Under the pieces are notes generated by a model that worked only from the letters and a program-made list of their open reading frames with translations, was not told where the DNA came from and did no database searches. From NCBI GenBank assembly GCA_034509425.1, contig JAVTVJ010001381.1:124001-188000 (forward strand): 64,000 nucleotides of DNA, written 5' to 3'. This DNA comes from Eopsaltria australis (lineage: Eukaryota > Chordata > Aves > Passeriformes > Petroicidae). The position numbers and the translations under genes were made by a program. This document shows positions 22,135 to 59,800 of this stretch, in pieces (within the stretch, counting starts at the first letter, position 1; each line of letters starts with the position of its first letter).

Positions 22135-22142
22135 AAAGAGAC

Positions 22143-31704: not shown

Positions 31705-31706
31705 AT

Positions 31707-31726
31707 TGGGGGTGTCGCCCGGGATC
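31707..31726 (+). other. Primer binding site, tRNA-Pro-like
   Basis: TGGGGGTGTCGCCCGGGATC. It resembles the proline site used by many gammaretroviruses with a small insertion and changes. The assignment is tentative. Confidence 0.5.
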
Positions 31727-35935: not shown

Positions 35936-35955
35936 TAGGGAGGTCATGGGCTCTG
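35936..35955 (+). promoter_or_regulatory. Amber read-through site between gag and pol
   Basis: TAG at 35936-35938 followed by GGAGGTCATGGGCTCTG. The nucleocapsid and protease are in the same frame on both sides. The bases after the stop are very close to the known gammaretrovirus read-through context, so this stop is taken as functional design and not damage. Confidence 0.65.
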
Positions 35956-36278
35956 TTTTCTGGGGGATAAATACCTTCTAGAGCCTTTGATAACCTTAAA
36001 GATGGGCCCCCAAGAGGAGGTATTCGAATTTATAATGGATACTGGGGCAGAGAGAACTTGTGTAGTAAATATTCCAAGGGAATGTGATGCAAATAATGAC
36101 ACTGTGAAAGTAACAGGAGCAAAAGGGAAAGGGTTTAGGGTTCCTGTCATTAAAAATGTAGTAATTGAAGGGGAAACCAGAATAGGGATGGGAGATGTCT
36201 TATTAGTTCCTGGAGCAGGTTGCAACTTATTGGGGAGGGACTTACAGATACAATTAGGAATAGGGGTTATACCCGAAG
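35939..36278 (+). CDS. Class I protease (pol start), interrupted
   Basis: An aspartic protease with FIMDTGAERTCV (catalytic DTG) and the conserved NLLGRDL end. It is open from the amber codon to the solo LTR at 36279, so it is complete through GRD. The frame then reads seven codons into the LTR and stops. Downstream pol resumes in the same frame after 36903. Confidence 0.8.
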
Positions 36279-36903
36279 TGTTGGGGAAGATGAAATAGGA
36301 AAGCCTTATAAATATGATTACCTGGCAAAAGATGCTGAGAATGTAGAAACTATAAGTGAGATTGAAATGAAGACAAGCTTTGAGATACCAAACCCCAGTT
36401 ATTGAACAACTAGAAAACAATGGCATGGCCGACTGCAGGTAATCCCCCCTTTGATTAAACAATACCCTCTGCTTGCAGACAGGTCCAAGGGTCAGAGCAG
36501 ACCCTACCAACTTGGCAGAAGGTCCAAAAAGCAGTTTTTAGGGTTTAAAATATAACGCCATATGGTAATGCAATAGTTCTCATAGGCTGTATGCAAATGT
36601 TATAAGATTTGTAGTTTGTTCTAGATTGGTTAATGAAAATTAGAATATTCAGCACAGAAGATGATTGATTGTATTGTAAATGGCAAGCTCGCTCTCTTAG
36701 ATCCTCTCCAACTCTCTCTTTGATCCTCTCTTCGATCTCTTCTCTCCTCTCTTGCTTCTCTGACCTGCTCCGGGCTGCATCTGGCAGCCCCTAGCAGGTG
36801 TCCTACACCTACGCCTTTTCACAATAAACTTCATGCTGTATGACCCGACTTCAGAGATCTCTCGTCTGTCCCGACCATCTGAAACTGACCCGCAAATTCT
36901 ACA
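36279..36903 (+). repeat. Solo class II LTR between protease and RT
   Basis: 625 bp, TGTTGGGG to TTCTACA, with AATAAA at 36823-36828. The flanks are CCGAAG (36273-36278) and CTGAAG (36904-36909), a 6-bp duplication with one transition. Placing the edges here makes protease and RT continuous. Confidence 0.75.
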
Positions 36904-37990
36904 CTGAAGAAGGGAAAATGACAGCTAAAGTGTTAAAACTTGGACAAGAAGATGAGGAAAAAATTAATAAAAAGGTTTGGGCCAGGGAAGGAAATAGGGG
37001 AGGATTTAATATTGACCCTATAAGAGTCACGATCGAGAAAGAAGAATGTCCCATCCGTATATGCAGTACCCTATATCCTTAGAAGGAAGAGAAGGCTTAA
37101 AGCCGGTAATAGAATAATTAATAAAGGATGGGACATTGGAACCCTGTATGTCTCCTCATAATACCCATGTTCTTTCAGTAAAAACGCCTGATGGGAAGTA
37201 TAGATTAGTAGAAGATTTAAGAGAAGTGAACAAAAGAACTCAAAACCGTTACCCAGTGGTACCCAACCCCTACACTCTTTTAAGTAAAGTCCCACCTCAG
37301 CAACAGTGGTCTAGTGTAGTGGATCTAAAAGATGCTTTTTGGGCTTGTCCATTAGCAGGGGAAAGCTGGAATATTTTTGCCTTTGAATGGGAGGATCCAA
37401 ACACTGGGAGGAAGCAACAACTAAGATGGACAAAACTACCACAGGGATTCACCAAATCTCCAAATCTATTTGGGCAAGCTTTAGAAGAACTATTACAAAC
37501 TTTCCCCACTCCTCCCAGAATACAAATGATCCAATATGTAGATGATCTTTTATTATCAAGGGAAGTTGAAGTTGAAGTGGAAGTTAGAGAAGCTACTATA
37601 ACATTTCTGAATTTTCTTGGGGAAAAAGGATTAAGAGTATCAAAAGGGAAATTACAATTCGTAGAATCAGAGGTGAAGTATCTCAGTCACTTAATAAGCA
37701 AAGGAAGCTGAAGATTGCATCCTGAGAGGGTGGAAGGGATTTTATCTCTACCCGCTCCTTCTTAAAAGAAGGAAGTTAGGAGACTGCTTGAACTGTTGTC
37801 CTATTGTAGATTATGGATTGAAGGATATACCCAGGCAGTAAAATTTTTATATGAAAAATTGACAGAAGGGGAGGATATAAAATGGGCCAGGGAAGATGAT
37901 AATAAATTGAAGTTGAAACTAGCTTTGGTACCAGCCTTGAGCTTACCCTCACTAGAAAAACCCTTTCATCTGTATGTAAATGTGGAAAGT
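36904..37990 (+). pseudogene. Class I reverse transcriptase
   Basis: The RT reads KVWAREGNRGGF, then LVEDLREVNKRT, the LPQGFTKSP turn and the active site YVDD at 37535-37546. Both catalytic Asp codons are present. A stop near 37081 precedes the 191-codon open part (37136-37711). Another stop occurs at about 37709 and a third near 37760. The connection domain begins SLEKPFHLYVNVE and is cut by the solo LTR at 37991. Confidence 0.8.
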
Positions 37991-38614
37991 TGTTATGGTG
38001 GTCCAAGCCCCCAAAACCCCTTTTTCCCCCCCTAGGAAGCTCTGGGCTAGGGACTCCCCTGGGGTAGAGCCCTAAGTGGTTTGCCCTGTAGATGGGCCGA
38101 GCTTCCCGGGGGCTGGCTACCCTGTCCCCACTTGTCCGGTCACCTGCCACTCTCCTGTCTATCATATTTAGGTTCCAGAAAGTTCTCTGTTACTCAGTAG
38201 TTGATTGTGTTATCCCCTTGTCAGTCTCCCCTTCTCCTCCCCCTTCCCTTCCCAGTTGGTTCCTGTCCCCTGATCCCTCCCTGGTATCTCCCCAGAGCCC
38301 GTCAGTGATTGGTTTGTAATCCCTCAATAAAAGTCTGATGCAAAGGCCGCTCCAGGTCTTTCACCTGGATACCCAGAGAGCTGTTAACACTGTGTTACAG
38401 TGTCTCTATTATTCTGGGGTGAAAGATCCCTCCCGCTATACTCCGGCTCTTTGGTTACAGTGTCCACCGTAAAGGGAGAAGCGGCCTGCGGCCAGGGACG
38501 TAAGGATCCGACAGCAGTGAACGTGCTCAGGCTGGGGACACTCACTTGTAGCCGCCGTCGGGCTGCTGTCCGAAACCCTGGTGGGCAACTGGCCAGCCCA
38601 CACCATCGGCCACA
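37991..38614 (+). repeat. Solo class II LTR in RT connection
   Basis: 624 bp, TGTTATGG to CGGCCACA, with AATAAA at 38326-38331. Perfect 6-bp duplication GAAAGT (37985-37990 and 38615-38620). Length and end sequence are close to the LTRs at 32496 and 36279, suggesting related class II families. Confidence 0.85.
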
Positions 38615-39084
38615 GAAAGTGGAATAGCTCATGGAGTTTTAGTCCAGGAATGGGGGGAGTGAAAAAGTCAGTAGCTTATTTATCAAAATTGCTAGATCCA
38701 GTAAGTCATGGTTAGCCAATATGTATTAAAGCTATATCAGCTACTCCTATTCTGGTAGAAGAGAGCCGTAAACTCCCTTTTGGAAGTAAACTAACGGTGT
38801 ATACACCCCATGCAGTACGAAATGTGTTAAAACAAAAAGCTGAAAAATTGATAACAGACTCTAGGATGTTAAAATATGAAGCACTTTTGATAGACAGTGT
38901 TGACTTGACACTAGAAGTAAGCAAAAGTGTAAATCCAGCTCAATTCTTATATGGAGAACCAAAAAGTAACTTAACACGTAACTGTTTAGAAATTATACAA
39001 TACTAAACTAAAATTCAGGAGGATCTAGCTGAACTAGCCCTCCCAGAAGGAGAAAGAATATATGTTGATGGTTCATCTAGATGT
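38615..39084 (+). pseudogene. Class I RT connection, broken
   Basis: It continues the connection domain (GVLVQEWGGVKKSVAYLSKLLDP, shown only in part here as YLSKLLDP), then LTVYTPHAVRNVLKQ. Stops near 38714 and 39003 separate it from RNase H. Confidence 0.65.
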
Positions 39085-40690
39085 TTGCAAGGAAAGAGGA
39101 TGTCAGGATATGCCTTGGTTGATGAGAAAAGTATGCAGACCATCGAAAAAGGGAAATTACCTTCAAACTGGTCAGCTCAATCTTGTGAGTTATATGCTCT
39201 AAAAAGGGCACTGGAATATTTAGCAGAAAAGAAAGGGACCATATATACCGATTCAAGGTATGCCTTTGGAGTAGTGCACACCTTTGGAAAAATTTGGGAA
39301 GAAAGACAATTACTAAATTCAAAAGGTAGGGGACTGATGCATGAGGGACTCATTTTAGAGGTTTTAGAGGCATTAAAATCACCTGAAGAGATAGCTGTGG
39401 TACATGTTAAAGGACACCAAAAGGGAATGACCCCAGAAATAAGAGGGAATAATTTGGCAGATCAAGAGGCTAGAGATGCAGCAGAAAATGGGACCAAAAG
39501 GGTTATGTTAGTTTTGACCCCAGATCAGGAAGATTTGGAAATCCCAAAATTTAGTGAAGCAGAAGAAAGAGAATTAAGTAAAATAGGGGGAGAGCAAGAT
39601 CAATCCGGGAAATGGAAACTTCCTGATGGGAGGCCATTACTTAACAAACCTCTTGCTAGGAAAATATTAGAAGATATGCATCAAAAAACTCACTGGGGTA
39701 CTCAAGCCCTGTGTGATCACTCTTTAAGGAATTATGGGTGCATTGGGATTTTTGGATTAGTAAAACAAGTAACTGAGAGATATATAATTTTTCAAAAAGT
39801 AAATAAAAAGGTAAAGAGAAAAACAATGTTAGGAGGCAGTGAGTTAGCTTTGCAACCATTTCAAAGTATCCAAGTGGATTTTACTGAGCTTCCTCAAGTG
39901 CAGAGGTGGAAATTTTTATTGGTAATAGTAGACCATTTAACTCATTGGATAGAAGCTGTTCCCACTGTCAGAGCTGCAGCTAATGTGGTATGTAAAACCC
40001 TTTTGGAACAAATTATTCCCAGGTATGGAATGGTTAATAGAATAGACTCAGATAGAGGAACACATTTTACCTCAAAAATCCTACAGCAAATAACTCAAGC
40101 CTTGGGAATAAAATGGGAATTACATACCCCATGGCACCCCCAGAGTTCAGGCCGACTGGAGAGGATGAACCAGACTTTAAAGAGAACTCTAACAAAACTA
40201 ATGATTGAAACACAAATATCATGGGCAAAATGTTTACCTTTGGCCCTATTGAGGGTCCAAACACAACCCACATCAGACCTGCGAGTGTCACCATATGAGA
40301 TGATGTTTGGATTACCCTTTCTGACCACCCAACATGAAACTGCTACCTATGAAGTGGGGGAAATGAGTGTTAGAAAATATGTCACCACAATTGCAAGGAC
40401 GCTTAAAAATTTGCAGTTGAAAGGGCTAATCCCTCAAACCACACCTTTAGAATTTAAAATCCATAATATCTATCCAGGGGAGTGGGTACTAGTGAAAACT
40501 TGAAAAGAGCAATCTTTAACTCCACAATGGGAAGGTCCTTTTCAGGTACTACTGACAACTGAGGCCGCGATCCGAACCAGGGAAAGAGGATGGATCCACA
40601 CTAGCAGAATCAGGGGACCTGTAGAGGAACCTAAGAAGTGGATCATAATCTCCAAACCGGGTGATACCAAGTTGACTTTCAAGCAGGGAC
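39010..40690 (+). CDS. Class I RNase H and integrase
   Basis: An open frame of 472 codons (39085-40503), with RNase H starting slightly upstream at YVDGSS (about 39062). The RNase H acidic set is visible: VDGSS, SCELYAL, YTDSRYAFG, GNNLADQEA. Integrase keeps the core: VDFTELP (Asp), DSDRGTHF (Asp), and 35 residues later the Glu of QSSGRLERMN, a D,D-35-E arrangement. In the zinc-binding region part of the HHCC set looks lost. After a TGA at 40501 the C-terminal GPF module (WEGPFQVLLTT) continues to about 40645. Confidence 0.8.
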
Positions 40691-40914
40691 AAGGGAGCAA
40701 TGAACTGGGAAGACCCAAATGATCTAAGGAGTGTACAAAGAATCACACCTAATTAGAAAGTAAGGCCAAGCTTATATCAGTGGTTTCAAGTGTCACCTGG
40801 ACAAGTTCTGAGACACCTCTGTTACCCCCTTGGGAGGAAAACTTCCACTTCAAACAGGAAGAATTGGACTGTTTCAGCCAGAAAGCCCTCATATTTTGAC
40901 CTTAGCCTGTGACT
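40691..40914 (+). other. Pol-env intergenic part of class I provirus
   Basis: Non-coding; it ends in the 6-bp target GTGACT next to the nested solo LTR. Confidence 0.5.
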
Positions 40915-41345
40915 TGTCTCAGCAGACACGGACACACGACACACCAATAATCCAAGTACAGAAAAAGCTTTTTATTAGTCCATGTTAGTACCTTTATACC
41001 TTTTTTTACAGCTACCGTGGTTTGTTATGATTGGCTGCGTGACAAACAATGACAGGGCTGTCTACAAAACAAGAACTATTCATAGCACTATACAACAAAC
41101 TATGCAAGCAATTAGCTACACACTACAAGTACATTCTTGATGTTCCTCAGCAAGGCCATCTCCTCCTTTGGGTGCAAAACATCTTCTTCGGTTATCTTCT
41201 TGGCTGTTCTTGAGTCCTTCACTGTGGCTGCAGACTTTCACATCCTCACTTTCTCATGAAGTTTTCTCACGGGTAAATTTTGATTGCTTCTAAGTCAATT
41301 TCCAAGAGGCTTTCAGGCCTGCTGTCAGCCTCATCAAACCCCACA
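40915..41345 (-). repeat. Solo class II-type LTR (minus)
   Basis: 431 bp, TGTCTCAGCAG at 40915 to AACCCCACA at 41345. Perfect 6-bp duplication GTGACT (40909-40914 and 41346-41351). On the minus strand TATAAAGG (about 40990) is followed by AATAAA (complement of 40971-40976). Confidence 0.85.
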
Positions 41346-41351
41346 GTGACT

Positions 41352-43637
41352 TATATAAAGAAGAGGAGGAATTACAACCTCCATCAGTACCATCCCCTAT
41401 ATCGTGTCTAATTCACCCCAATACCAGGACATACTAGCTGGGTTAAATATAAATGCTTAGGTTGTGGAAAAATTGGTATTGCAGCTCACGAAAACAGCGA
41501 TCTCATTGTAGGAAGTGTCAAGTGCCAAAATCTATCCCCTATCCAGACAGAAGTAAGAAAAACTAAAATAATAACTTTACTTTGTGGATGGGAATTACTA
41601 GTGCCTGTTAAATGGGAGATACCTGAGAAACAATGGGAAACTACAATTAAGGAGTGTAAAAAAATGGTTTTCCTGGAAATTAGCAAAAAGGAAGTGACCA
41701 GGAAATAGAGGGCAAGACCGGGTTGGCCGCTGTACTGTCCACCGAGAAGATCATATACATCTGCTGTGGGTAGCAACCCCATAGGCATGGGAGGTGGGGG
41801 TATAAGCCATGCCAGACCTCTGTTGTTCCTTTTTCTGTCACTCATTCTTTTCCCTTTTGGGATGCCAGTAAAATTATGTTGCCAATGCTACCGAAGGCTT
41901 TACATGGAAAGAAACCGAGGTTCCTATTTTATTTCTCACACCCATGTCAACAGTCACTGTTATAACCCATCCAAATTAGGTACCTGTATACACAACGGGA
42001 AAAAATACTGGATTGCAGAAAACTTAGGAAAAAGTGATAATAGGCTTGGAAGTGAATGTCCAAAAGGGGAAAGATGGGTTTGTTTCACATTTGCCCTTAA
42101 GGGTAGAGTGCAGGATTTGGTTAAAGAACAATTAGTAAACAAAAAGGCAAAACCAACACAGCCATCTAACTGTATCAAAACCACTTCAGGATTGGTATAC
42201 GAAATTCAAACAATTAGAAAAGGAAATAGATATCTCGAGATCCAGGAAAAACTTGTTTGTGGAATTGGGGGAAAGAATAAGTAAGGAACTTAATGTAACC
42301 AACTGCTGGGTCTGTGGAGGGGCTTTAATGACAGAGGAATGGCCGTGGAAAGGCAGTAGCTTGGGCCCAACTGAACTCCTTAAGTGGAACCAGACAAACA
42401 TAAGGAGGGAAACCTGACCAAGAGGATGGATTTTAAGTTCAACAGTAACAGGAGAAGAATGTCGCTGGCGCACTGGGAAGAATTTTGTTAATGAAGTCGG
42501 GCATACTCCCTGTAAGAGATATAAAGTCAGTAATGGAACCTTTACGCAGTGGATCCCAGAGGCATCAACTCTGTATTTGACCCATAGAATGACAAAAGAA
42601 AAAAAATTCTAAGTATAAAAGTGAAATTAAACTTTTCCAATGTAATGATACAGGCAAGAATCCTTATTTTAGGATCCCAGATATATCCAAATTTTGGGAA
42701 AATATGGATCAACAGAAAGATGATTATTGGAAAGCACCAGATGGCTTATTTTGGATATGTGGGAAAAGAGCATATCCAAAACTCCCCTCCCGATGCAAAG
42801 GGAGTTGTACTCTGGGGATCATACAGCCAGGGTTTTTTCTTCTACCAAGGCCAGATGGAGATCAATTAGGAGTACCAGTTTATGATGACCTAAAAAGGAA
42901 AAAGAGGAATTGGATTGGAGGATCTCAAAAATGGGGAGATGAGGAATGGCCCCCTGAATGCATATTGGAAACATATGGGCCAGCCACTTGGGCACAAGAT
43001 GGGAGTTGGGGATATCGAACCCCCATTTATATGCTAAATTGTCTTATAAGACTCCGAGCAGTTGTAGAAATAATGTCAAACAAAAATTCTAAGGCAATGG
43101 AATTAATAGCAAGTCAACAAAGTCAAACAAGGAGTGCAGTATATCAAAACAGGTTGGCTTTAAACTATTTGCTAGCTGAAGAAGGGGGTGTTTGTGGAAA
43201 ATTTAATACATCAGATTGTTGTTTGAAAATAAATGACAATGGGGATGCCGTCCTGGATGTAGCCAAAGATATCAGGAAAATAACCCAAGTACCAGTCCAA
43301 AAATAGGAATCGATACTAAAAACTAGCTGATGGGATAATATATTGGGAGCGGAATGGTGGAAGAATCTAGGCTTCTTCCTTTTATGTGCTACAGCTGGGT
43401 TGATATTTCTTCCTTGCTTGATCCCGTTTTATTCGGCTAATCACCAGCATAGTCCAAAGCATGCAAGTGGTAACAATGCCTATGGACCCAAAATTGGCTA
43501 CATCTGGAACGGCACAAAAAAGATGTTAAAGAAACCAAATGGTACAGAAGACGCCTTTGAAGAAGCAAATTTGATTTATGAAAGAAATTAACAAAGAAAT
43601 GAAGGCTAGAATTATTGCTCAAGCCAAATGATCTATA
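41352..43637 (+). pseudogene. Class I env, broken
   Basis: The surface part is open at 41787-42284 with a signal-peptide-like start (LLFLFLSLILFPFG) after ATG at 41787, and many cysteines. Frame changes and stops follow between 42285 and 42700. The next open part (42704-43306) holds the transmembrane ectodomain with YQNRLALNYLLAEEGGVC and a disulfide motif in which seven residues lie between the first Cys and the CC pair. A stop near 43304 separates it from the anchor (WWKNLGFFLLCATAGLIF, about 43355-43420). No complete Env can be made. Confidence 0.75.
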
Positions 43638-43656
43638 AAAAAAGAAGAGGGGGGAT
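43638..43656 (+). other. Polypurine tract of class I provirus
   Basis: AAAAAAGAAGAGGGGGGA directly before the 3' LTR; primes plus-strand DNA synthesis. Confidence 0.8.
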
Positions 43657-44269
43657 TGTGATAAATACATATTATAGTATTGGCTTTTCGCAAGTGTCAA
43701 AATGAATACTATGTGTATAATGTTAATCCTTATAGAAGTAGCTTTTGTTATAGATATATAATGATTACTAAATGCTTTTTTCTTTGTTCTAACTTAGATA
43801 TAGTTGAGAAATAACTAATATAGCTGTGTTAAAATGTACCTAACTTACAATAAACCACCTGCTTAGCTGGATGAACACGGGTATGACAGGCACCTGCCAC
43901 AGGATATCTCTATCAACAACAACCATCTGTTTGAAACTGATGGATGAAGGAAGATACTGAACTCTCCAAAAGGACCACGCATGCTCTAAAAAGGCGGACC
44001 CAAGGAGGAGCCATGCTAACTAGTTCTTGGAACATGTAAAATAGTTTAGGGGAAAGTCTGAATATGCATAATTGTCTATGAATATGCAATAGGCTGATGC
44101 AATAAGAGAAATATACAAAGAGAATCTCTCACCATAACAGGTGTGCTTTTAGCTCAGTGCCAAGGGTACCCAGCATCCTGGGCATTGTAACCTTTTGCTC
44201 TATCTTGTCCCTTATTGTCTTTTATTAAACCTTTAAATTTTAACAGGAGAGTGGACCTCATTTTTCACA
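43657..44269 (+). repeat. 3' LTR of class I provirus
   Basis: 613 bp, the same length as the 5' LTR. Differences by eye include clusters near 44055-44060 and 44110-44160. Confidence 0.85.
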
Positions 44270-46748: not shown

Positions 46749-46754
46749 ATCACA

Positions 46755-47443
46755 TGTAGGGGTAGTGGACATAGAATTAAAACTACTAAAGCCCCCTGGC
46801 CACTCCTGGTGGGTGAGCCCAGGCAACACCCCTGTCTCAGAGACTACAATGGTCTAAACCTTCGAGAAATCTCTCCCCCAAACTCCACCTAGTTAAATAT
46901 TATTCGTTTATGATATTGTCACTCCAAGTTTATATCCTCCCCAAGTTCTGGAAAATTCATCGTTCTGTTATACGTGATTTGTTGTTACCCCCTGCTCCCG
47001 CCTGTACCCCGATCCTGTTGGATGTGACTCCCCTTCCCCGCCCCAACTTCGCCCACTTGCTGTTCTGTCATTGGTTAATCTTTGCAGTTAAAAGGGCATG
47101 TCTGAGCTGGCTCGAGGCTTCTTCTGCCCCAGGAGTCAGAGAATAAATAGCTCTGTTACCGGCAGTGGAGTCGTTCCCTTTGTACCTCGTGGTCCCTCCG
47201 TGATTCCTCGGGATAACCCAGACGGCCCTCGACGTCCTGTCGCCCCGGCGGGATTTACTCCCTCACGTCTAACCACCGAAAGGTCTGGTTATTCGTGGTC
47301 AACCGGGAGAGGATAGGACAACCACCTGCAGAGAGTCTCTAGGCTTCCTGGACCAGAGAAGGAAGCCGTCCTCCGCCTGCCTGAACCCGAGGCAGCAGCG
47401 AGGACCCGAACGGCTTCGGACTGAATATTTTTTTATTTTATTA
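46755..47443 (+). repeat. 5' LTR of class II provirus
   Basis: TGTAGGGG to TTTTATTA. TTAAAAG (about 47078) is a weak TATA-like box and AATAAA is at 47142-47147, leaving an unusually long U5 of about 280 bp. The end TTATTA, and not CA, is fixed by the target duplication after the 3' copy. Confidence 0.9.
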
Positions 47444-47445
47444 AT

Positions 47446-47463
47446 TGGCGCCCAACGCCGTGA
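47446..47463 (+). other. Primer binding site, tRNA-Lys-like
   Basis: TGGCGCCCAACGCCGTGA, two bases after the LTR. The first 12 bases equal the Lys1,2 site; the rest differ. Confidence 0.6.
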
Positions 47464-47767
47464 TTCCTCGAAATCACGAGGGACGGCTTGCCATCGAACG
47501 GCAAAGACGCACGTTGTGGGCCAACCCCTGCAAATCTGCCTCTTGTTTTAGAGGGGGGATTTGTTAGGGAGGGTGGCGACCCCTCGCTCCGGGAGTGAGG
47601 GAACTGCCCTGACCGCGAGAACCCTTCGTCTCCGTTTTTGGATTTATTTCGGGTGAGGAAAATTGCAGCGCTGCGTCGAGGCTTCGTGCCTAAAGGAATC
47701 CGGTGGAGCGGTAAGCTCAAAACATTTATATTTTTCTTTGAGGCGAAGGGAAAAAGAGTTTGAGAAG
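47464..47767 (+). other. Leader of class II provirus
   Basis: Untranslated region that should hold packaging and splice-donor signals; I could not place them with confidence. The gag frame is open upstream from 47663, but the first in-frame ATG is 47768. Confidence 0.55.
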
Positions 47768-49879
47768 ATGGGTATTCATCTCTCAAAAACGGACAGGGAA
47801 CTTTCTCGTTTGTATTATACGGTTAAGATTAAGTTAGTAGAAGCCGGAGAAAATTTTGATAAGGTTTTGTTAAAAGACTTTATTAGGTGGGTGGTCAAAT
47901 ATGTTCCCTATTCTCATCCTTCTGTTATATTACGAGTTTCTTTTTGGGATTCTGTGGGACATCGTTTAACAGAATTTGCGGAATCGGGGGATGATTCAGT
48001 TAGGAAGTTTTTTCCGTTGCAGATTTTAGTTTACAAGGTTTGGGTTAGAAACAGGGGAAGTTCGATTGTTCGGGAACCTGGGATCCCTAACCCAAATGAG
48101 CCCTTAATCACCCTCGATCCTAACTCCTCTGTTCCTAATCCCTTTGTCCCTGGTGGGGAAGCGGCGGGGGTACCTCTCTATAGCCATCGGCTACAGGGAG
48201 AAATCCGGGGTGTTCGAGACCCCGACTCTCGCAGCTCCTCTACCAACCCCTTCGGCACCGGTACCGGCCATCCCGGGGCTGACCCTACCCCTACCCGCGT
48301 CCCTAATCCCGTCTCCCAAGTTGCGCCAGTGGCGCCTTTTGTACCCGGTTGTTCTTCCCCGAGTTATCATTGTTCTATAGGAATTCAAAGTGCATCACCG
48401 CAAAATGGCCCTGAAATCATTAAAACTGCGCCACAGCAACACGGTGGCGGCGAATTTCATGCTGCACCACCACGAAATGGGGGCTGTGCCAGCTCGCCGC
48501 GATGCGGTCATCACTGTGTTGTGTGCGCATGCTCAGGTGCGGACGGCGGGAACCCCTTGCCCTCCTCCCTTTACCCCACCCCCGATCCGTCGATCGATCC
48601 TGCGTCGGTCCCTCCCCTGGCGGCCGATGATGTCACTGCGACGGGTCCCCTCCCACCTTCCCAATCCCACCCCTCGGGTCCCTCCGCCCCTACAGCTGCC
48701 GCGCGGTCCACCCCTCCCGCCGCCGCGCGGTCTGCCCACCCCCCGCCTCCACCAATCCCGCCCATTCCTAGCCCCACCCCTCCTCCGTTTTCCCACGGTC
48801 CAGATTCCGGTTCCCACGGACCTGGATCGGAAGGGGGGAGGCCGGCAGCGGCACCACTTGTGGCGCCGATCACATATAATAGAATGGGGGCCAATCCACG
48901 ATGGGATCCACTTCCCCAGTGGACAATTAAAGATATCTGTAAGGCTGGCAAAGAATTTGGCCGTGATTCTGGATATTTTAAGGGATTGGTGAATGCGACC
49001 TTTGAATCCTCAGTTCTTGTTTCAAAAGATATTAAGGTGTTAATGGCAAGTTTGTTAACGGAAAGCCAATTTGGAGTTTGGGAGCAGAAATGGAAAAGAG
49101 AAGTGCAAAAATTACGAGGCATGTACAAAACTGACCCTAACAAAGCAAATCTAACTATGGACCATCTAGTGGGAGAGGGGAATTATGTGAAACCAATAGA
49201 TCAAGCTACAAATGATCCTGAAAATGTTCTAGTGGATGTTCAAAATATAGCAAAAAGAATTTTGTTCAGCATTCCAGTCGTGATGGGTCCTATTAAAAGT
49301 TATACAGAAATTAGGCAAGGGCCTGATGAGAACTTTGGCGTGTTTGTGGACCGCCTCAGAGAAGCCATGTCTAGGACCATCACAGATCCCAAAATGTTGA
49401 AAGAAATATTACTAGAATTAGTTCGCCAGAATGCTAATGAAGACTGTAAACGTGTCATTGATTCATTACCAGTGGAACCCCCTCCCACCATAGATTTGAT
49501 TACTGAGCGTTGTTCAGAAATCAGAGCGAAATTAGAACCTGATAATAGACGACGAAAAGATCTCTTTGCAGCTGCTGTGGGCACTCGTGATAAACTGATA
49601 TGCTATAACTGTGGTAAATTAGGCCATTTTTCTCGAGAATGCAAGAACCCAAAAGCTAACAAGTCCATCCAACAAAGTAACGTTAATACTAAGACTTCTC
49701 CGAGTGTTTTATTCCAGCAACAACCACAGAATGCCATGGTACCCCAGATGACACCGCAATGGGGACCTTATCCACCCATGTTTCCATGGTGGGGGCAGCA
49801 GTACCCGGCTCCAGCGCAGACGTCGGGAAACGGGAGTGGGAGGGCGGAGCAGTGCCGCGCTCCGGAACAAACAAATTAA
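47768..49879 (+). CDS. gag: Class II Gag polyprotein
   Basis: 703 residues, no stops. ATG at 47768 gives MGIHLSKTD; Gly2 suggests myristoylation and membrane targeting. Residues 1-110 are matrix-like. About 120-365 is proline/serine-rich, with a run of HPPPPPIPPIPSPTPPPF that could hold late-domain motifs. Capsid begins near residue 367 (PITYNRMGANPRW) and includes the major homology region near 515-535 (IRQGPDENFGVFVDRLREAM). Nucleocapsid has a single CCHC knuckle, C612-C625 (CYNCGKLGHFSREC); two are usual in alpha- and betaretroviruses. The end overlaps pro. The tail is rich in P, Q and W. Confidence 0.9.
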   Translation: MGIHLSKTDRELSRLYYTVKIKLVEAGENFDKVLLKDFIRWVVKYVPYSHPSVILRVSFWDSVGHRLTEFAESGDDSVRKFFPLQILVYKVWVRNRGSSIVREPGIPNPNEPLITLDPNSSVPNPFVPGGEAAGVPLYSHRLQGEIRGVRDPDSRSSSTNPFGTGTGHPGADPTPTRVPNPVSQVAPVAPFVPGCSSPSYHCSIGIQSASPQNGPEIIKTAPQQHGGGEFHAAPPRNGGCASSPRCGHHCVVCACSGADGGNPLPSSLYPTPDPSIDPASVPPLAADDVTATGPLPPSQSHPSGPSAPTAAARSTPPAAARSAHPPPPPIPPIPSPTPPPFSHGPDSGSHGPGSEGGRPAAAPLVAPITYNRMGANPRWDPLPQWTIKDICKAGKEFGRDSGYFKGLVNATFESSVLVSKDIKVLMASLLTESQFGVWEQKWKREVQKLRGMYKTDPNKANLTMDHLVGEGNYVKPIDQATNDPENVLVDVQNIAKRILFSIPVVMGPIKSYTEIRQGPDENFGVFVDRLREAMSRTITDPKMLKEILLELVRQNANEDCKRVIDSLPVEPPPTIDLITERCSEIRAKLEPDNRRRKDLFAAAVGTRDKLICYNCGKLGHFSRECKNPKANKSIQQSNVNTKTSPSVLFQQQPQNAMVPQMTPQWGPYPPMFPWWGQQYPAPAQTSGNGSGRAEQCRAPEQTN
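49825..49864 (+). promoter_or_regulatory. Gag-pro -1 frameshift signal
   Basis: The heptamer G GGA AAC (49825-49831) is in register with the gag frame. After a 13-base spacer a hairpin can form: CGGAGC (49845-49850), 8-base loop, GCTCCG (49859-49864). pro is the -1 frame and is open across this point. GGGAAAC is a known betaretrovirus slippery sequence. Confidence 0.75.
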
Positions 49880-50619
49880 ACGCTGGCGGAGAGAAGGACT
49901 TTGCGACGCACATAGACATTCCGGACTTGACAAGAAAATTCAGGTATGACATTGTTACAAGTTTTGCACTACACTTAACATCGAATGAGTTCCAGCACAT
50001 TGCTGTGTCCATTCAGAATGCTCCAGCACACCCAATGTCTGTGTTGTTAATTGGAGACTCCAGTCGAGGTCCTCCAGGTATCTTTGTAGTGCCCGAGATA
50101 AAGACATTCTGTCCAAATAAGAACCTTAGTCTGAGCCTGTGCCCGAACATGACACCTTGGTTCCTGCCACAAGGAACTTGGATAGGGCAGGCAATTGTTT
50201 TACCCGACAGCCTTCCTAAAGACAGGTCAACCCCGTTTGTCTGCTGGACTGAGGTTGTCGGAAAGGACAAACCTATTGTCACTTGTAGATTGGACAACGG
50301 TCGTTCTACTACCATTTGCCATGGGATGCTAGACACAGGCGCGGATGTGACTGTTATATCGAAAGCAGACTGGCCATTGGCATGGGGGACCAAAGAAGCT
50401 CCACGAGGGCTGTACGGTGTGGGGGGTGAAGTAACTCCTCAAAGGAGCACTTCTGATATCTTGATTAAGGGCCCTGATGGACACATAGCATCTGTCTGTC
50501 CCTTCATTCTTCCCCTGGGCTTTAACTTGTTTGGGAGGGATGTCATGTCCCAGTGGGGGGCGACCCTAGAGATCCCTCCTGCGACACCTCCGAGAGATTT
50601 CTTGGGGGGGCCACTGTAG
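49829..50619 (+). CDS. pro: Class II pro: possible dUTPase-like part and protease
   Basis: Reached by -1 frameshift; the frame is open from before 49759 to TAG at 50617-50619. The C-terminal about 110 residues are a retroviral aspartic protease with HGMLDTGADVTVIS and the NLFGRDV end. The preceding about 110 residues lie where betaretroviruses carry dUTPase. The LPQGTWIGQAIVLP segment recalls its C-terminal strand, but the catalytic motifs are not evident, so the part may be a degenerate dUTPase. No G-patch domain follows the protease. Confidence 0.8.
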
Positions 50620-50664
50620 CACGCGCCACTCCAGCCATTAAGTGGTTGACCGACCAACCGGTCA
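50601..50664 (+). promoter_or_regulatory. Candidate pro-pol -1 frameshift region
   Basis: A run of seven Gs (50604-50610) lies in register for a G GGG GGG slip, seven bases before the pro stop. pol is the -1 frame and open here. A hairpin TGACCG/CGGTCA (50647-50664) is possible but farther away than usual; a pseudoknot was not resolved. Confidence 0.5.
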
Positions 50665-53336
50665 GAGTGGAGCAGTGGTCCCTGCACGGTGAGAAGCTGC
50701 GTGCCCTCCAAGATCTGGTAGACGACCAGCTGAGAAAAGGACATATCACCCCCTCAACAAGTCCCTGGAATTCCCCTATTTTTGTTATCAGAAAGCCAGG
50801 GACGGGGAAATGGAGACTCCTCCATGACCTTAGAGCTATCAATAAGGTCATGGAGGAGATGGGCCCCCTACAACCAGGTCTCCCATCCCCCGCAATGTTA
50901 CCTAAAGACTGGCCCATGGCCATCATTGACATTAAAGACTGCTTTTTTTCAATACCTTTACATCCCGAAGACGCGCCTCGCTTTGCTTTTTCTGTTCCAT
51001 CAACAAACAGGGAGGCACCAATGAGGAGATACCACTGGCTCGTATTACCGCAGGGAATGAGAAATTCCCCTGTGATATGCCAGTGGTATGTCTCCGAGGT
51101 GCTTTCCCCTGTGCACAAAGCATTCCCCAAGGCCAGAATTGTCCATTACATGGATGATGTCCTAGTTTGTGCCTCCGAGGAGAATTACATGGAACAGACT
51201 TTGACTCAGGTCATCCAAGCCATACAGTCAGTAGGCATGGAAATACAGCCCGATAAAATACAGAGGAACCAGCCGTGGAAGTATTTAGGAGTGAAGATAA
51301 CGGACAAAATCATCGTGCCCCAACTCCTAAAGATAGAAGACCATCCCAAGACCCTACAACAGCTTCATCAATTGTGCGGCTCCTTGAACTGGATCCGGCC
51401 GTTGCTGGGACTCAAAACGACAGAGTTGGCGCCCCTCTTCACACTCCTAAGAGGTGGACGAGCATTAGACAGCCCTGTGACGATGACACCCGACGCCATC
51501 AAGGCCATCGAAAAAGTAATGCTGGCAATTTGTACACGACATGCTCACCGTACTAACCCGGTCCTCCCCTTCCGCTTCACCATATTGGGGAGGACCCCAC
51601 AATACCATGGGTTAATCTTTCAGTGGGATGGAGGGGTCAAGGATTCACTCCTGATCGTAGAGTGGATATTCTTGCCCCACACCCCGTCCAAAACAATATC
51701 GACGCCACAAGACCTAGTGGCTGGGCTCGTTACGCGAGCTCGGTCTCGGCTCCGCACCCTTGCGGGGTGCGATTTTGCGTACATAACAGTTCCCTGGAAG
51801 AATGAGCAATTTGAAGAAGTCTTTCAGGAGAGTGAACACCTCCAGCTAGCTCTGGAAAATTATTCAGGCCAAATTGGGTGTGAAAAGCTGAAGCATCACC
51901 TGTTCAGCTCTGAATTTCAATTGGCACCGAAATTTGTTCAAAGTAAGATACCAATAAAAAATGCTTTGACAATTTTTACCGATGGCTCTGGGTCGTCTCA
52001 CAAGGCGGTTGTGACCTGGAGAGACCCAGAAACCCTCGTGTGGGATGAGGAAGTGCACACTGTGGAGGGTTCTCCACAGGTTGCAGAGTTGTCAGCGGTG
52101 GTCAGAGTATTTGAAAGGTTTCAGGAGCGACCTATCAATTTAGTAACAGATTCAGCGTATGTGGCCGGAATAGTTTCCAGAGCAGAGCATTCTTTAATCA
52201 AAGAGGTTCCAAACAAAAAGTTATTTGGGTTGCTTGTGAGATTAGTCCAGCTCCTGTCCCACCGCAAGCACCAATTCTTTGTTATGCACGTAAGATCACA
52301 CTCAGAGTTACCAGGTTTCATCGCCGAAGGTAATGCGCGAGCTGACGCCCTTGCGATGCCTGTATTGAAATGTAACACCCTGAACATCTTCGAGCAGGCA
52401 CGCTTGAGCCACAGGTGTTTCCACCAGAACGCTCTGGCGCTCCGGAGAATGTTCAATCTCTCCGTTGAGCAAGCCAGAGCCATAGTGGCCACATGTCCGA
52501 GCTGTCAAGAACACCAAATACCAGCTTTTAATCAGGGGGTCAATCCACGAGGACTTAATGCCAATGACATATGGCAAACTGATGTTACCCATTTTCCATC
52601 CTTTGGGAGGTTGAAGTACCTGCACGTGTCTATAGACACCTTTTCGGGTGCAGTGTACGCCTCCGCGCAGACTGGTGAGAAAGCCCGAGATGTCAGGAAA
52701 CATCTCACCCTGGCATTTTCTGTACTGGGAGTGCCAAGGGAAATTAAAACTGACAATGGTCCTGCATATGTCTCTGCGTCCATCCGAGACTTTATGCAGG
52801 ACTGGGGCGTCAAACATGTGACGGGCATTCCGCATTCTCCCACCGGGCAAGCCCTAGTGGAGAGAAAGCACCGAGACTTAAAAAGGATCCTCCTACAACA
52901 GCGGGGAGAGGCAGAGAGAAAGACGCCAATTGAGCAACTCTGCAAGGCTCTATTCACTTTAAATTTTCTAAATTGTTCTGAGGACGAGCCGACTCCCCCC
53001 GTATTCAGGCACTTTACGGGCTCAACGCAAGCAAAATTGGCTGAAAATCCGCCTGTGTTGTACAAGGACCCTGAAAGTCTACAAGTAAAGGGGCCAATGC
53101 CACTAATCGTCTGGGGGAGGGGATATGCTTGCGTCTCCACCCCAGGCGGACCGCGCTGGCTCCCGGCTAAGAACATCAAGCCTTACCGGAAAGAATGCCC
53201 TGTCCAATCAGAAAACACTGGAAAAGACAAACATACTGCGTGGAAACGCAGAAAGAAGAAAGCTACAACGAACGAACTACAACGACCAGACGAGACAGAC
53301 TACAGACACCATGACGGACGACGGAACAGTATTTAA
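50607..53336 (+). CDS. pol: Class II Pol: RT, RNase H, integrase
   Basis: The frame is open from 50553 to the stop ending at 53336 (927 codons); translation would enter it by frameshift near 50607. Numbering from 50553, RT has LPQGM and YMDD at residues 199-202. RNase H has FTDGSGSS (Asp477), AELSAV, VTDSAYV and EGNARADALA. Integrase has an H-x3-H...CPSC zinc site, then Asp677 (WQTDVTHF), Asp734 (KTDNGPAY) and Glu770 (QALVERKHRDLK), a D,D-35-E core. All catalytic residues I can check are present. The C-terminus is a highly basic tail (WKRRKKKATT). Confidence 0.9.
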   Translation, partial: GATVARATPAIKWLTDQPVRVEQWSLHGEKLRALQDLVDDQLRKGHITPSTSPWNSPIFVIRKPGTGKWRLLHDLRAINKVMEEMGPLQPGLPSPAMLPKDWPMAIIDIKDCFFSIPLHPEDAPRFAFSVPSTNREAPMRRYHWLVLPQGMRNSPVICQWYVSEVLSPVHKAFPKARIVHYMDDVLVCASEENYMEQTLTQVIQAIQSVGMEIQPDKIQRNQPWKYLGVKITDKIIVPQLLKIEDHPKTLQQLHQLCGSLNWIRPLLGLKTTELAPLFTLLRGGRALDSPVTMTPDAIKAIEKVMLAICTRHAHRTNPVLPFRFTILGRTPQYHGLIFQWDGGVKDSLLIVEWIFLPHTPSKTISTPQDLVAGLVTRARSRLRTLAGCDFAYITVPWKNEQFEEVFQESEHLQLALENYSGQIGCEKLKHHLFSSEFQLAPKFVQSKIPIKNALTIFTDGSGSSHKAVVTWRDPETLVWDEEVHTVEGSPQVAELSAVVRVFERFQERPINLVTDSAYVAGIVSRAEHSLIKEVPNKKLFGLLVRLVQLLSHRKHQFFVMHVRSHSELPGFIAEGNARADALAMPVLKCNTLNIFEQARLSHRCFHQNALALRRMFNLSVEQARAIVATCPSCQEHQIPAFNQGVNPRGLNANDIWQTDVTHFPSFGRLKYLHVSIDTFSGAVYASAQTGEKARDVRKHLTLAFSVLGVPREIKTDNGPAYVSASIRDFMQDWGVKHVTGIPHSPTGQALVERKHRDLKRILLQQRGEAERKTPIEQLCKALFTLNFLNCSEDEPTPPVFRHFTGSTQAKLAENPPVLYKDPESLQVKGPMPLIVWGRGYACVSTPGGPRWLPAKNIKPYRKECPVQSENTGKDKHTAWKRRKKKATTNELQRPDETDYRHHDGRRNSI

Positions 53337-53487
53337 TGGACAATAATGCAGAACGCATGTTTTATAAATTGTCGTTTCCCCGTTTTCCATTCCCACTTTC
53401 CCTTACCCTTTTAGTCCCTCCCTTTCTACCTTCCTATACTTCCTTACCCACTCTACCCTTGAAAACCCCATCTTCCGTCTCCCCTCG
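53337..53487 (+). promoter_or_regulatory. Polypyrimidine tract and candidate env splice acceptor
   Basis: A long C/T-rich run (about 53367-53480) contains TTACCCTTTTAG ending at 53414, a strong acceptor candidate for a spliced env message. No ORF of note. Confidence 0.55.
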
Positions 53488-53530
53488 AAATAAAGGAAAA
53501 GGGGGAGTTATGGGAGGAGTTCATAGAAAG
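53488..53530 (+). repeat. Second polypurine tract with trace of U3 start
   Basis: AAATAAAGGAAAAGGGGGAG (53488-53507) matches 54864-54883, the tract before the 3' LTR, at 19 of 20 positions. The next about 23 bases also resemble the first bases of U3 (both reach CATAGAA). It lies between pol and env. Confidence 0.7.
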
Positions 53531-53556
53531 GAGATGAGGGGAGGGAGAGAGTTATG

Positions 53557-53580
53557 GTGAAAAAAAAAAAAAAAAAAAAA
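53557..53580 (+). repeat. Homopolymer A run before env
   Basis: An uninterrupted A run of about 20 bases after ATGGTG. It makes a poly-lysine reading in the env frame and is prone to length variation. I do not read it as a retrogene tail. Confidence 0.7.
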
Positions 53581-53640
53581 GGGAGAAACGGTGAGATGTA
53601 TAATCATGTAACCTTTGTGATTTGTAGAGAAATCTTAAGA

Positions 53641-54987
53641 ATGAAGAGAACCCAGAACTACATCCTGCCCAGTCGCGCAATCATTGTCCTTACGATGTTG
53701 GTGATCACCCTGCCATCCTTGAATACGTGGATTGTGCAACAACCCAAAGAGAACATCTGGGTGACACTCGCAAAAGCTCTCAAACAAGATAGCATGTGTT
53801 TAAGCATGCATTCGGCACATGACCCTATGTCGACATGCCTAGTAGGTATCCCCCTGCGAGAGGATGACCATTCCTTCGCAGGCAAGTGGCCCAATCCAGT
53901 TGAGACCTGGGACGCCTGGATGAAGACCCTCCCGCAAGCACCAGAGGAACCCCAAGAATTGGCACTATTGGGGTCCGCTAAGGCGACATTCTGTATCAAA
54001 TTTGATTACCCCTATACAATGGAAGATATAAACCATTATACAATTCGGAAAATCCCCCACAAAGAGGTGTCTCCCATAAAAAGGTCAATCTATAGCTACA
54101 AGACTTGGTGCAATTACACCGCAAATACACGGTCTAAGTCCAGCGCTGTTCCCAAGATTCTCCCTAGCGGTATGTTCCTAATCTGTGGAGACAGAGTTTG
54201 GGCCGGGATACCGTCCCATCTTCTAGGTGGGCCATGCACGTTGGGCCAACTCACCCTCATGACCCCCAACAAAACACAGATTTTGGAATGGAGAAAATTT
54301 TATAATCAGACGCGTCCAAAAAGAGAATTGGTGAATTGGGACGAAAATTGTAATTCGGAAGTTACCCACTGGAGTTTTTCTAAGAGGGTGGCTGCCTCCA
54401 TATTCGTGCCCTGGGTGGCAGCAGCAAAGGCGTTGGGGGAATTAACCCATCTAGAATGTTGGCTTGGGAAACAAACTAACTTAACGTCCCGTGTGCTGAC
54501 CCAGTTACTAGAAGACGAAGACACTACTAGGCAAGCCACCCTGCAAAACAGGGCGGCAATCGACTTTTTACTCCTCGCACACGGGCACGGGTGCGAGGAT
54601 TTCGAGGGGATGTGTTGTTTCAATCTATCATCAAATTCAAAAAGTATACATGCTACCATTCAAGAGTTGGACGGACGACTAAGGGAACTCAAGGTTGAGA
54701 GCAAAGACTGGTTGCAGCACATGTTTGATGGCATGGGACTTTCGTCGTGGGTAATAGGTTTGGTCAAATCATTGTTGTGGGTTCTTGTCATCGTTGTTAT
54801 AGTCTTGTTACTGTTTGCATGTTTAAAAAATGTTCTTCTAAATTTAGTTAAAAACACCTCCCTAAATAAAAGAAAAGGGGGAGATGTAGGGGTAGTGGAC
54901 ATAGAATTAAAACTACTAAAGCCCCCTGGCCACTCCTGGTGGGTGAGCCCAGGCAACACTCCTGTCTCAGAGACTACAATGGTCTAA
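53641..54987 (+). CDS. env: Class II Env, alpharetrovirus-like TM, short SU
   Basis: The ATG at 53641 (MKRTQNYILP) is followed by a signal-like hydrophobic stretch; 53596 is an alternative start. SU is only about 225 residues up to the furin-type site RPKR (54313-54324), clearly shorter than in avian leukosis-type viruses. TM has an internal fusion-peptide region ending in CWLGKQTN, the helix LQNRAAIDFLLLAHGHGC and CEDFEGMCC, a CX6CC motif implying a disulfide link to SU. One hydrophobic anchor (about 54748-54835) follows. The last about 34 residues are encoded inside the U3 of the 3' LTR; TAA at 54985-54987. Five or more N-glycosylation sequons. No stops. Confidence 0.85.
   Translation: MKRTQNYILPSRAIIVLTMLVITLPSLNTWIVQQPKENIWVTLAKALKQDSMCLSMHSAHDPMSTCLVGIPLREDDHSFAGKWPNPVETWDAWMKTLPQAPEEPQELALLGSAKATFCIKFDYPYTMEDINHYTIRKIPHKEVSPIKRSIYSYKTWCNYTANTRSKSSAVPKILPSGMFLICGDRVWAGIPSHLLGGPCTLGQLTLMTPNKTQILEWRKFYNQTRPKRELVNWDENCNSEVTHWSFSKRVAASIFVPWVAAAKALGELTHLECWLGKQTNLTSRVLTQLLEDEDTTRQATLQNRAAIDFLLLAHGHGCEDFEGMCCFNLSSNSKSIHATIQELDGRLRELKVESKDWLQHMFDGMGLSSWVIGLVKSLLWVLVIVVIVLLLFACLKNVLLNLVKNTSLNKRKGGDVGVVDIELKLLKPPGHSWWVSPGNTPVSETTMV
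54864..54884 (+). other. Polypurine tract of class II provirus
   Basis: AAATAAAAGAAAAGGGGGAG then A, directly before the 3' LTR and inside the env frame. Confidence 0.85.
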
Positions 54988-55573
54988 ACCTTCGAGAAAT
55001 CTCTCCCCCAAACTCCACCTAGTTAAATATTATTCGTTTATGATATTGTCACTCCAAGTTTATATCCTCCCCAAGTTCTGGAAAATTCATCGTTCTGTTA
55101 TACGCGATTCGTTGTTACCCCCTGCTCCCGCCTGTACCCCGATCCTGTTGGATGTGACTCCCCTTCCCCACCCCAACTTCGCCCACTTGCTGTTCTGTCA
55201 TTGGTTAATCTTTGCAGTTAAAAGGGCATGTCTGAGCTGGCTCGAGGCTTCTTCTGCCCCAGGAGTCAGAGAATAAATAGCTCTGTTACCGGCAGTGGAG
55301 TCGTTCCCTTTGTACCTCGCGGTCCCTCCGTGATTCCTAGGGATAACCCAGACGGCCCTCGACGTCCTGTCGCCCCGGCGGGATTTACTCCCTCACGTCT
55401 AACCACCGAAAGGTCTGGTTATTCGTGGTCAACCGGGAGAGGATAGGACAACCACCTGCAGAGAGTCTCTAGGCTTCCTGGACCAGAGAAGGAAGCCGTC
55501 CTCCGCCTGCCTGAACCCGAGGCAGCAGCGAGGACCCGAACGGCTTCGGACTGAATATTTTTTTATTTTATTA
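54885..55573 (+). repeat. 3' LTR of class II provirus
   Basis: 689 bp, six differences from the 5' LTR by eye. AATAAA at 55272-55277. It is followed by the duplicated ATCACA. Its first 103 bases encode the Env C-terminus. Confidence 0.9.
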
Positions 55574-55579
55574 ATCACA

Positions 55580-56634: not shown

Positions 56635-56815
56635 GGGGGGGGGGGGGGGGGGGGGGCANNNNNNNNNNNNNNNNNNNNNNNNNNNNNNNNNNNNNNNNNN
56701 NNNNNNNNNNNNNNNNNNNNNNNNNNNNNNNNNNNNNNNNNNNNNNNNNNNNNNNNNNNNNNNNNNNNNNNNNNNNNNNNNNNNNNNNNNNNNNNNNNNN
56801 NNNNNNNNNNNNNNN
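56635..56815. other. G homopolymer and assembly gap
   Basis: 22 Gs (56635-56656), two bases, then 157 Ns (56659-56815). Sequencing through the G run probably failed. Any feature spanning this point is uncertain. Confidence 0.95.
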
Positions 56816-59241: not shown

Positions 59242-59795
59242 TCTTGTGGGTTGACCCCGGCTAGGTGCCAGGTGCCCACTCAGTCACTCTATCACTCCCT
59301 CTCCCACTGGGAGAGGGGAGAGAATAATATGGAAAAAGACTACCAGGGTAAGAAAAGGCAGTTTTATTACAGCGGGAAAAAAAAAAAATAGAACAAGCAA
59401 GAGCAGAGGGGAAAACAATCAATCTCTACTTCCCATCAGCAGTGATGTCCGGACACTTTCTGGGAAGCAGGGCTTCAGCATGCGTGATGGTTGCACAAGA
59501 AGGCAAAACAGGGATGAGTCCTGAGTGCCTCCTCCTCCTCTCTTCCTTCCCTTATGTGTCTGAGCTGATGTCATATGGTATGGAATATCCCTTTGGCTGA
59601 CTGGGGTCAGCTGGCCTGCTGGTGTCCCCTCCCAGGATCTTGCCCACCCCCATCCCCTTCAGTGGGGGAAAGAATGTCAGAGGGACAGCACTGCTTGGCA
59701 GTAGCCAAAACACTGCTCTGTTATCAATGTCAGCTTCTAATACAAAGCACAGCACTGTAAGGGCTGTGAGCATTACCCCAGTCAGACCCAATACA
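59242..59795 (-). repeat. Solo ERVL LTR (family A, minus)
   Basis: 554 bp, with a changed end TCTTGTGGG at 59242 and ACCCAATACA at 59795. Flanked by CCCCC (59237-59241 and 59796-59800), a 5-bp duplication, although low in complexity. It is inserted in LTR-like sequence. Confidence 0.75.
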
Positions 59796-59800
59796 CCCCC

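What the first reader, a model, noticed from the sequence alone, without database searches (positions are those of the whole stretch)
46755..55573. Young class II provirus with all four genes open
Directly seen: perfect 6-bp target duplication, 689-bp LTRs with six differences by hand count, and uninterrupted gag, pro, pol and env frames with catalytic residues of protease, RT, RNase H and integrase present. Every other provirus here is broken. With neutral rates usual for birds, 0.9% LTR divergence points to an insertion of at most a few million years, possibly still polymorphic. That dating is inference.
Basis: partly seen in the sequence, partly recalled or inferred. Interest (0 to 1): 0.75.

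Follow-up and report, generated by a model that had tools for sequence, protein, structure and literature searches.

The report
Young intact hybrid bird retrovirus
A retrovirus copied itself into this genome (apparently a songbird's) recently enough that all four of its genes are still readable, and it is a mix: its inner machinery resembles mouse mammary tumour virus and human HERV-K, while its cell-entry protein resembles that of chicken leukosis viruses.

Summary
In detail: a provirus at 46755-55573 with two 689-bp LTRs (6 differences), a 6-bp target duplication, and gag, pro, pol and env frames without stops. CpG o/e is 0.69, against 0.22-0.46 in six other stretches. Capsid, protease and integrase score better with betaretroviral than alpharetroviral structures, pro has its own frame between two candidate slip sites, and the primer site is of lysine-tRNA type; Env is of the alpharetroviral 'avian gamma' type. 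Gene models in a white-eye and a swallow carry related RT and Env together, so the pairing predates this copy. A second polypurine tract lies before env. Envelope swaps are a known kind; I did not find this pairing in seven paper searches. The host genome could not be searched, so empty sites, copy number and activity are untested.

The parts
46749..46754 (+). target-site duplication, left copy (ATCACA)
46755..47443 (+). 5' LTR, 689 bp, TG...TTA; AATAAA at 47142, TTAAAA (TATA-like) at 47088
47446..47463 (+). primer binding site, begins TGGCGCCCAACG (lysine-tRNA type; assignment and 18-base length recalled)
47768..49879 (+). gag, 703 aa from first Met: capsid N and C domains, one CCHC zinc knuckle
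49825..49831 (+). gag-to-pro -1 slip site G GGA AAC, in gag phase, predicted hairpin downstream
49693..50619 (+). pro frame; retropepsin with DTG at 50332-50340; about 130 aa of unassigned sequence before it, where betaretroviruses carry dUTPase (recalled)
50604..50610 (+). candidate pro-to-pol -1 slip site G GGG GGG, in pro phase, predicted structure downstream
50526..53336 (+). pol frame: RT (YMDD 51147-51158), thumb, RNase H, integrase (HHCC, D,D-35-E)
53488..53507 (+). internal copy of the polypurine tract, 19 of 20 bases identical to the one at the 3' LTR
53554..54987 (+). env, 477 aa from first Met; RPKR cleavage site 54313-54324, CX6CC 54592-54618, ends inside the 3' LTR
54864..54884 (+). 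3' polypurine tract abutting the 3' LTR
54885..55573 (+). 3' LTR, 689 bp, 6 differences from the 5' LTR
55574..55579 (+). target-site duplication, right copy (ATCACA)

Best explanation
A recently inserted endogenous retrovirus of a bird, most likely a passerine, belonging to a lineage that pairs betaretrovirus-like gag, pro and pol with an alpharetrovirus-like (avian gamma-type) envelope. Shown: the anatomy, the open frames, the in-phase slip sites, the domain affinities and the young LTRs. Inferred: a viral or germline RNA was reverse-transcribed from a lysine-tRNA primer and integrated with a 6-bp staggered cut. If transcribed, it would make Gag, Gag-Pro and Gag-Pro-Pol by two -1 frameshifts and, by splicing, an Env cleaved at RPKR whose SU and TM are held by a disulphide at the CX6CC motif. 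The pairing arose by an older envelope swap in the lineage, not in this copy.
For: LTR pair, TSD and ORFs. Age: 5 of 6 LTR differences in CpG, 68 CpG sites against 621 others, Fisher p 4.5e-5; CpG o/e 0.69 in the provirus against 0.22-0.46 in six other stretches and 0.36 in the whole window. Beta-like core, bits (virus names recalled unless the row states them): capsid 59.3 for 8c9m 'Gag protein' and 56.2 for ERV-K capsid (named), against 30.1 for 1d1d (RSV, recalled) and 28.7 for the row named Rous sarcoma virus; protease 51.3 for 3sqf (M-PMV) against 39.9 for 1bai (RSV) and 37.9 for the row named RSV; integrase 237.5 for 7usf (MMTV) against 165.0 for 7jn3 (RSV) and 129.2 for the shorter chain named RSV; RT-RNase H best 460.7 for 7sr6 (HERV-K, recalled; row says 'Polymerase'; no row labelled as an alpharetroviral RT among the 60 shown of 335). 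Env: Avian_gp85 8.2e-15; best structure ASLV TM 1.6e-19, 73.2 bits, next Syncytin-2 31.0; cysteines 275 and 311 flank an internal hydrophobic segment starting nine residues after the cleavage site, CX6CC present, no C..C match, and these cysteines are invariant in the 7 sequences of alignment A2. Relatives: every named row among the 120 listed Env hits (of 300) is a bird; the top hit is 54% identical over 82% (Haemorhous). Among those 120 proteins, P0093 (Zosterops) and P0095 (Hirundo) carry RT 70% (127 aa) and 61% (148 aa) identical to this pol in the same gene model, P0120 a 47-aa pol piece (49%) and P0056 a gag piece (36% over 83 columns).
Against: No tree was built; the beta placement rests on pairwise scores. 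In the capsid and protease lists some lentiviral chains score above RSV too (38.5 and 33.8, labels recalled; tethered HIV-1 protease dimers head the list at up to 56.6 bits with two matched stretches each), so 'closer to beta than alpha' is firmer than 'closest to beta of all' for those two domains. Only one canonical zinc knuckle is seen, where betaretroviruses usually have two (recalled), and no dUTPase match was found. Gag found no relative at E<=0.001 in two protein searches. The G-run slip site is unusual and could be a weak shifter. The bird host is inferred from Env relatives only.
Confidence: 0.85

Rival explanations
1. An older insertion that looks young because the LTRs were homogenised by gene conversion, or because selection keeps the genes open (for example a co-opted env).
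For: LTR dating cannot see conversion. With a uniform rate equal to the LTR divergence, the chance that all four frames stay open by luck is only 0.012.
Against: With CpG-aware rates the chance of neutral survival is 0.20 (both figures assume one indel per ten substitutions), so no selection is needed. CpG o/e is high over the whole provirus, not only the LTRs, and the TSD is perfect.
Confidence: 0.08
2. An alpharetrovirus in the broad sense, of the alpha-beta intermediate group known from birds, rather than a beta-like core with a foreign env. (This is a rival on classification only; it can hold together with the youth and anatomy of the main reading, so the odds are not exclusive.)
For: The env is alpharetroviral in type. 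Passages in PMC3758190 describe an avian class II gag-pol with features of both genera, basal to the alpharetroviruses. One zinc knuckle and no dUTPase match also depart from a plain betaretrovirus.
Against: pro is in its own frame between two in-phase slip sites and the primer site is of lysine type. Capsid, protease and integrase all score higher with beta than alpha structures. The bird recombinant in that passage has a gamma-type env; this one has the avian gamma type.
Confidence: 0.2
3. A mis-assembly that joins pieces of several proviruses.
For: The window is dense with repeats and holds a 157-base run of N at 56659-56815, about 1.1 kb from the provirus.
Against: No other copy of this LTR or of these genes at high identity lies in the window. 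LTRs, TSD, frames, slip sites and CpG level form one coherent unit, and two gene models in other species join the same kinds of pol and env.
Confidence: 0.03

Closest known systems
TgERV-F of songbirds (Henzy et al. 2014; paper not held, known here through passages of PMC10536682)
   Same: a class II provirus in songbirds with a swapped envelope, active within the last few million years according to those passages
   Different: there an alpharetroviral pol carries a mammalian gamma-type env; here a beta-like pol carries the avian gamma-type env
Type D betaretroviruses such as Mason-Pfizer monkey virus
   Same: betaretroviral gag-pro-pol with a disulphide-linked (CX6CC) env acquired by recombination (passages)
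   Different: their env is of the gamma type; here the internal, Cys-flanked fusion segment and the lack of CXXC are of the alpharetroviral type
HERV-K(HML-2) and MMTV
   Same: best or near-best relatives by sequence among solved structures for capsid, RT and integrase (labels partly recalled); pro in its own frame (recalled)
   Different: env of the beta type without SU-TM disulphide in MMTV-like viruses (passages); two zinc knuckles and a recognisable dUTPase (recalled)
Avian leukosis and sarcoma viruses
   Same: env type: gp85 family match and TM
   Different: gag and pro share one frame and the primer is tRNA-Trp in those viruses (recalled); integrase, capsid and protease here score lower with theirs than with beta ones
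Avian ERVK families of passerines
   Same: class II elements with recent and ongoing activity in Passerida (passages of PMC11009239)
   Different: the passages I saw do not describe envelope type; whether this element belongs to a named ERVK family was not tested

Membership tests
Endogenous retrovirus (provirus) | paired LTRs, target duplication, primer site, polypurine tract, gag-pro-pol-env order | tested here: met
Betaretrovirus | pro in its own frame, two -1 frameshifts | tested here: met
   frames and in-phase slip sites at 49825 and 50604; shifting itself not tested
Betaretrovirus | lysine-tRNA primer site | tested here: met
   TGGCGCCCAACG at 47446; assignment to tRNA-Lys recalled
Betaretrovirus | capsid, protease and integrase closer to beta than alpha structures | tested here: met
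   some chain labels recalled
Betaretrovirus | RT within the betaretroviral clade on a tree | not tested
   no reference RT set was in hand; viral-contig scans gave no relative
Betaretrovirus | dUTPase in pro | tested here: inconclusive
   130 aa before the protease match nothing in PDB or Pfam at E<=10; single-sequence model unusable, pLDDT 32.7
Betaretrovirus | two CCHC zinc knuckles in NC (rule recalled) | tested here: not met
   one canonical CCHC found
Betaretrovirus | beta-type or gamma-type (type D) env | tested here: not met
   env is of the avian gamma type
Alpharetrovirus | protease in the gag frame (rule recalled) | tested here: not met
   pro is in a separate frame
Alpharetrovirus | tRNA-Trp primer site (rule recalled) | tested here: not met
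   site begins TGGCGCCC, the lysine type
Avian gamma-type Env | CX6CC in TM; fusion segment internal, about nine residues after the cleavage site, flanked by two cysteines | tested here: met
   definition in passages of PMC3758190
Avian gamma-type Env | no CXXC in SU | tested here: met
   no C..C match in the env frame; criterion from passages of PMC9967133

The most novel reading that the evidence does not exclude
The provirus is a fresh trace of a betaretrovirus-like virus of songbirds that still circulates or did so within the last few hundred thousand years, uses alpharetrovirus-type entry, and carries a second, internal polypurine tract next to env as a working plus-strand primer or as a scar of the envelope swap.
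Probability: 0.2. Interest if true: 0.65.

Novelty: new variant of a known kind. Interest (0 to 1): 0.42.

Why it matters
Passages of a 2013 review state that the avian gamma-type envelope was then known only from alpharetroviruses (PMC3758190), and passages of a 2023 review name bird recombinants with gamma-type env (PMC10536682). A young, intact provirus with a beta-like core and the avian gamma-type envelope shows that this envelope type is also carried by another class II core in birds, and it offers a clean reference for tracing the exchange in passerine genomes. The CpG result is also a caution: uniform-rate LTR dating can overestimate the age of CpG-rich young proviruses.

Tried and rejected
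Host genome: the genome search on the host assembly was asked eight times in the same form and never answered; copy number, solo LTRs and empty sites are therefore untested.

Gag relatives: two protein searches gave none at E<=0.001. The tool needs shared 5-residue words, so this is not evidence that Gag is without relatives.

IMG/VR: scans with pol and env gave no relative. Rfam: no match in the window at gathering scores. tRNA scan: none.

Another slip-like heptamer, CCCAAAA at 49648 in gag phase, lies before the pro frame opens at 49693, so a shift there would meet a stop; not used.

dUTPase: suspected from position and from what looked to me like a weak motif, but no match; the structure model had pLDDT 32.7 and was not used for a fold search.

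Extension of the polypurine repeat: an alignment of 50 columns looked suggestive, but the 100-base flanks scored on their own are no better than shuffles (740 and 790 of 1000 mononucleotide shuffles reach the score), so only the 20-base core is claimed. Its chance estimate is post hoc: the pattern was written after seeing both sites.

W chromosome: the density of proviruses fits the published picture (passages of PMC8310711), but nothing I looked at ties the window to W.

Papers: Henzy 2014 and a 2012 mBio paper, recalled as the survey of avian ERVs by Bolisetty and others, are not held. Seven searches of the library were made. I saw their listings, passages of PMC3758190, PMC9967133, PMC8310711, PMC11009239 and PMC10536682, and the outline and abstract of PMC6523648. 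I did not find this pairing described in what I saw; most subscription papers are absent from the library.

Full report
What is there. The window holds a complete provirus at 46755-55573. Self-comparison gives one LTR pair there, 692 aligned bases with 6 mismatches and no gaps, which trims to 689 bp each at 46755-47443 and 54885-55573. The flanks carry ATCACA on both sides. Both LTRs end in TTA rather than the usual CA. Because the two bases before the primer site (AT) also begin the right flank, 5- and 4-bp readings of the duplication are formally possible, but 6 bp is what class II integrases usually leave (recalled).

Genes. Stop-to-stop frames are gag 740, pro 308, pol 936 and env 486 codons, none with a stop. 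Pfam finds both capsid domains, one zinc knuckle, retropepsin, RT with thumb, RNase H, three integrase domains, and in Env the avian gp85 and TLV-coat families. Catalytic motifs are present, except that the fourth acidic residue of RNase H was not checked. The gag, pro and pol frames step back by one each time. G GGA AAC at 49825 lies in gag phase and a run of seven G at 50604 in pro phase, each followed by a predicted structure (these folds were not compared with shuffles). The first is a classical slip site; the second is a candidate. Env runs into the 3' LTR, and one of the six LTR differences (54960) falls inside it.

Age. Methylated CpG decays much faster than other sites (established knowledge), so the uniform-rate date (point values 0.95, 1.32 and 2.29 My for recalled rates of 4.6, 3.3 and 1.9e-9 per site per year) is likely too old. 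Non-CpG sites, 1 of 621, give 0.18-0.42 My with upper bounds of 0.98-2.36 My. CpG o/e over the provirus is 0.69; in the six other stretches measured (two other proviruses, a gag remnant, both flanks and 20.3-29.0 kb) it is 0.22-0.46, and 0.36 for the whole window. Neutral survival of all four frames has probability about 0.20 with CpG-aware rates and 0.012 with a uniform rate (both assume one indel per ten substitutions and set transition weights), so open frames need no selection if the insertion is as young as the non-CpG sites say.

What kind of virus. The core is beta-like. Best matches among solved structures, by sequence (names recalled where the row gives none): RT-RNase H 460.7 bits with 7sr6, HERV-K; capsid 59.3 with 8c9m and 56.2 with ERV-K capsid, RSV 30.1 or 28.7; integrase 237.5 with 7usf, MMTV, RSV 165.0; protease 51.3 with 3sqf, M-PMV, RSV 39.9. 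In one search tethered HIV-1 dimers stand first (up to 56.6 bits, two matched stretches each), and some lentiviral chains lie between ERV-K and RSV, so for these two domains the claim is 'closer to beta than to alpha'. The primer site begins TGGCGCCCAACG, the lysine-tRNA type (recalled). Env points elsewhere: its best structure match is the ASLV TM (73.2 bits; Syncytin-2 31.0). It has an RPKR cleavage site, a cysteine at the ninth residue after it, an internal hydrophobic segment, a second cysteine, CX6CC, and no C..C match. These are the features that passages of PMC3758190 and PMC9967133 give for the alpharetroviral, or avian gamma, type. So the provirus is a chimera by the standards of known genera.

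Features against a plain betaretrovirus label are one zinc knuckle and no detectable dUTPase. I therefore say that it works like a betaretrovirus in its core and like an alpharetrovirus in its entry protein, and do not file it in either genus.

Relatives. Env's top relatives are passerine proteins (top hit 54% identity over 82% of the query; the highest identity in any listed row is 60%, over 28%), with a rail, an owl, raptors, a quail and others further down (120 of 300 rows listed). No near-identical record was listed. Searched against the 120 listed Env relatives, this pol matched RT in P0093 (Zosterops, 70% over 127 aa) and P0095 (Hirundo, 61% over 148 aa) and a 47-aa piece in P0120; gag matched a piece of P0056 (Taeniopygia, 36% over 83 columns); the other 116 gave no gag, pro or pol match. 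Those gene models tie related pol and env together in other birds, so the swap is older than this insertion. The host is thus probably a passerine; this is inference.

An extra polypurine tract. The 20 bases just before the 3' end of the internal region recur with one change at 53488-53507, in the non-coding gap before env. Up to three mismatches allowed, the window holds just these two, against 0.03 expected and 0 of 100 shuffles with two; the pattern was written after both sites were seen, so the estimate is post hoc. It may be an internal plus-strand primer, as in lentiviruses (recalled) and foamy viruses (abstract start of PMC5294762), or a scar of recombination. The flanking similarity is no better than shuffles, so I leave the cause open.

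Surroundings. Other proviruses lie to the left: 11325-18021 (LTRs with 3 substitutions and one 5-base gap in 680 columns), an inverted relative of it at about 909-7843, and 31092-44269, class I by Gag_p30 and TLV_coat (12 differences in 613). The ORFs I scanned in them are split or short, and not every ORF was scanned. So the target is the only one in the window seen with four long frames, but not the only one with similar LTRs.

Verdict. Full-length ERVs are common on bird W chromosomes (passages of PMC8310711), which lowers surprise; the beta-like core with avian gamma-type envelope and the doubled polypurine tract raise it somewhat. Odds and scores are as in my first version; the corrections made on re-checking (counts, labels, scope of lists) did not call for a change.

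Noticed in passing
53488-53507 and 54864-54883: Polypurine tract present twice, before env and before the 3' LTR, 19 of 20 bases identical; above chance by a post hoc estimate.
   Followed up: partly
47441-47443 and 55571-55573: Both LTRs end in TTA instead of the canonical CA, while the neighbouring proviruses at 11325-18021 and 31092-44269 end in CA.
   Followed up: partly
11325-18021: Another provirus with very similar LTRs (3 substitutions and one 5-base gap in 680 columns), flanks GGCTC/GGCTG, RNase H-like domain but no RT match at E<=10 in its 637-aa ORF; an inverted relative lies at about 909-7843.
   Followed up: partly
31092-44269: Class I provirus, LTRs 12 differences in 613, no target duplication of 4-6 bp found, ORFs split.
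   Followed up: partly
250-819, 7842-8410, 22142-22712, 29490-30055, 59244-59798: Five copies of one repeat of about 570 bp, 88.7-96.5% identical; the fourth interrupts a class II gag remnant at 29178-30626.
   Followed up: no
49876-50265: About 130 aa between the slip site and the protease with no database match, in the place where betaretroviruses have dUTPase.
   Followed up: partly
56659-56815: Run of 157 N, an assembly gap about 1.1 kb to the right of the provirus.
   Followed up: no
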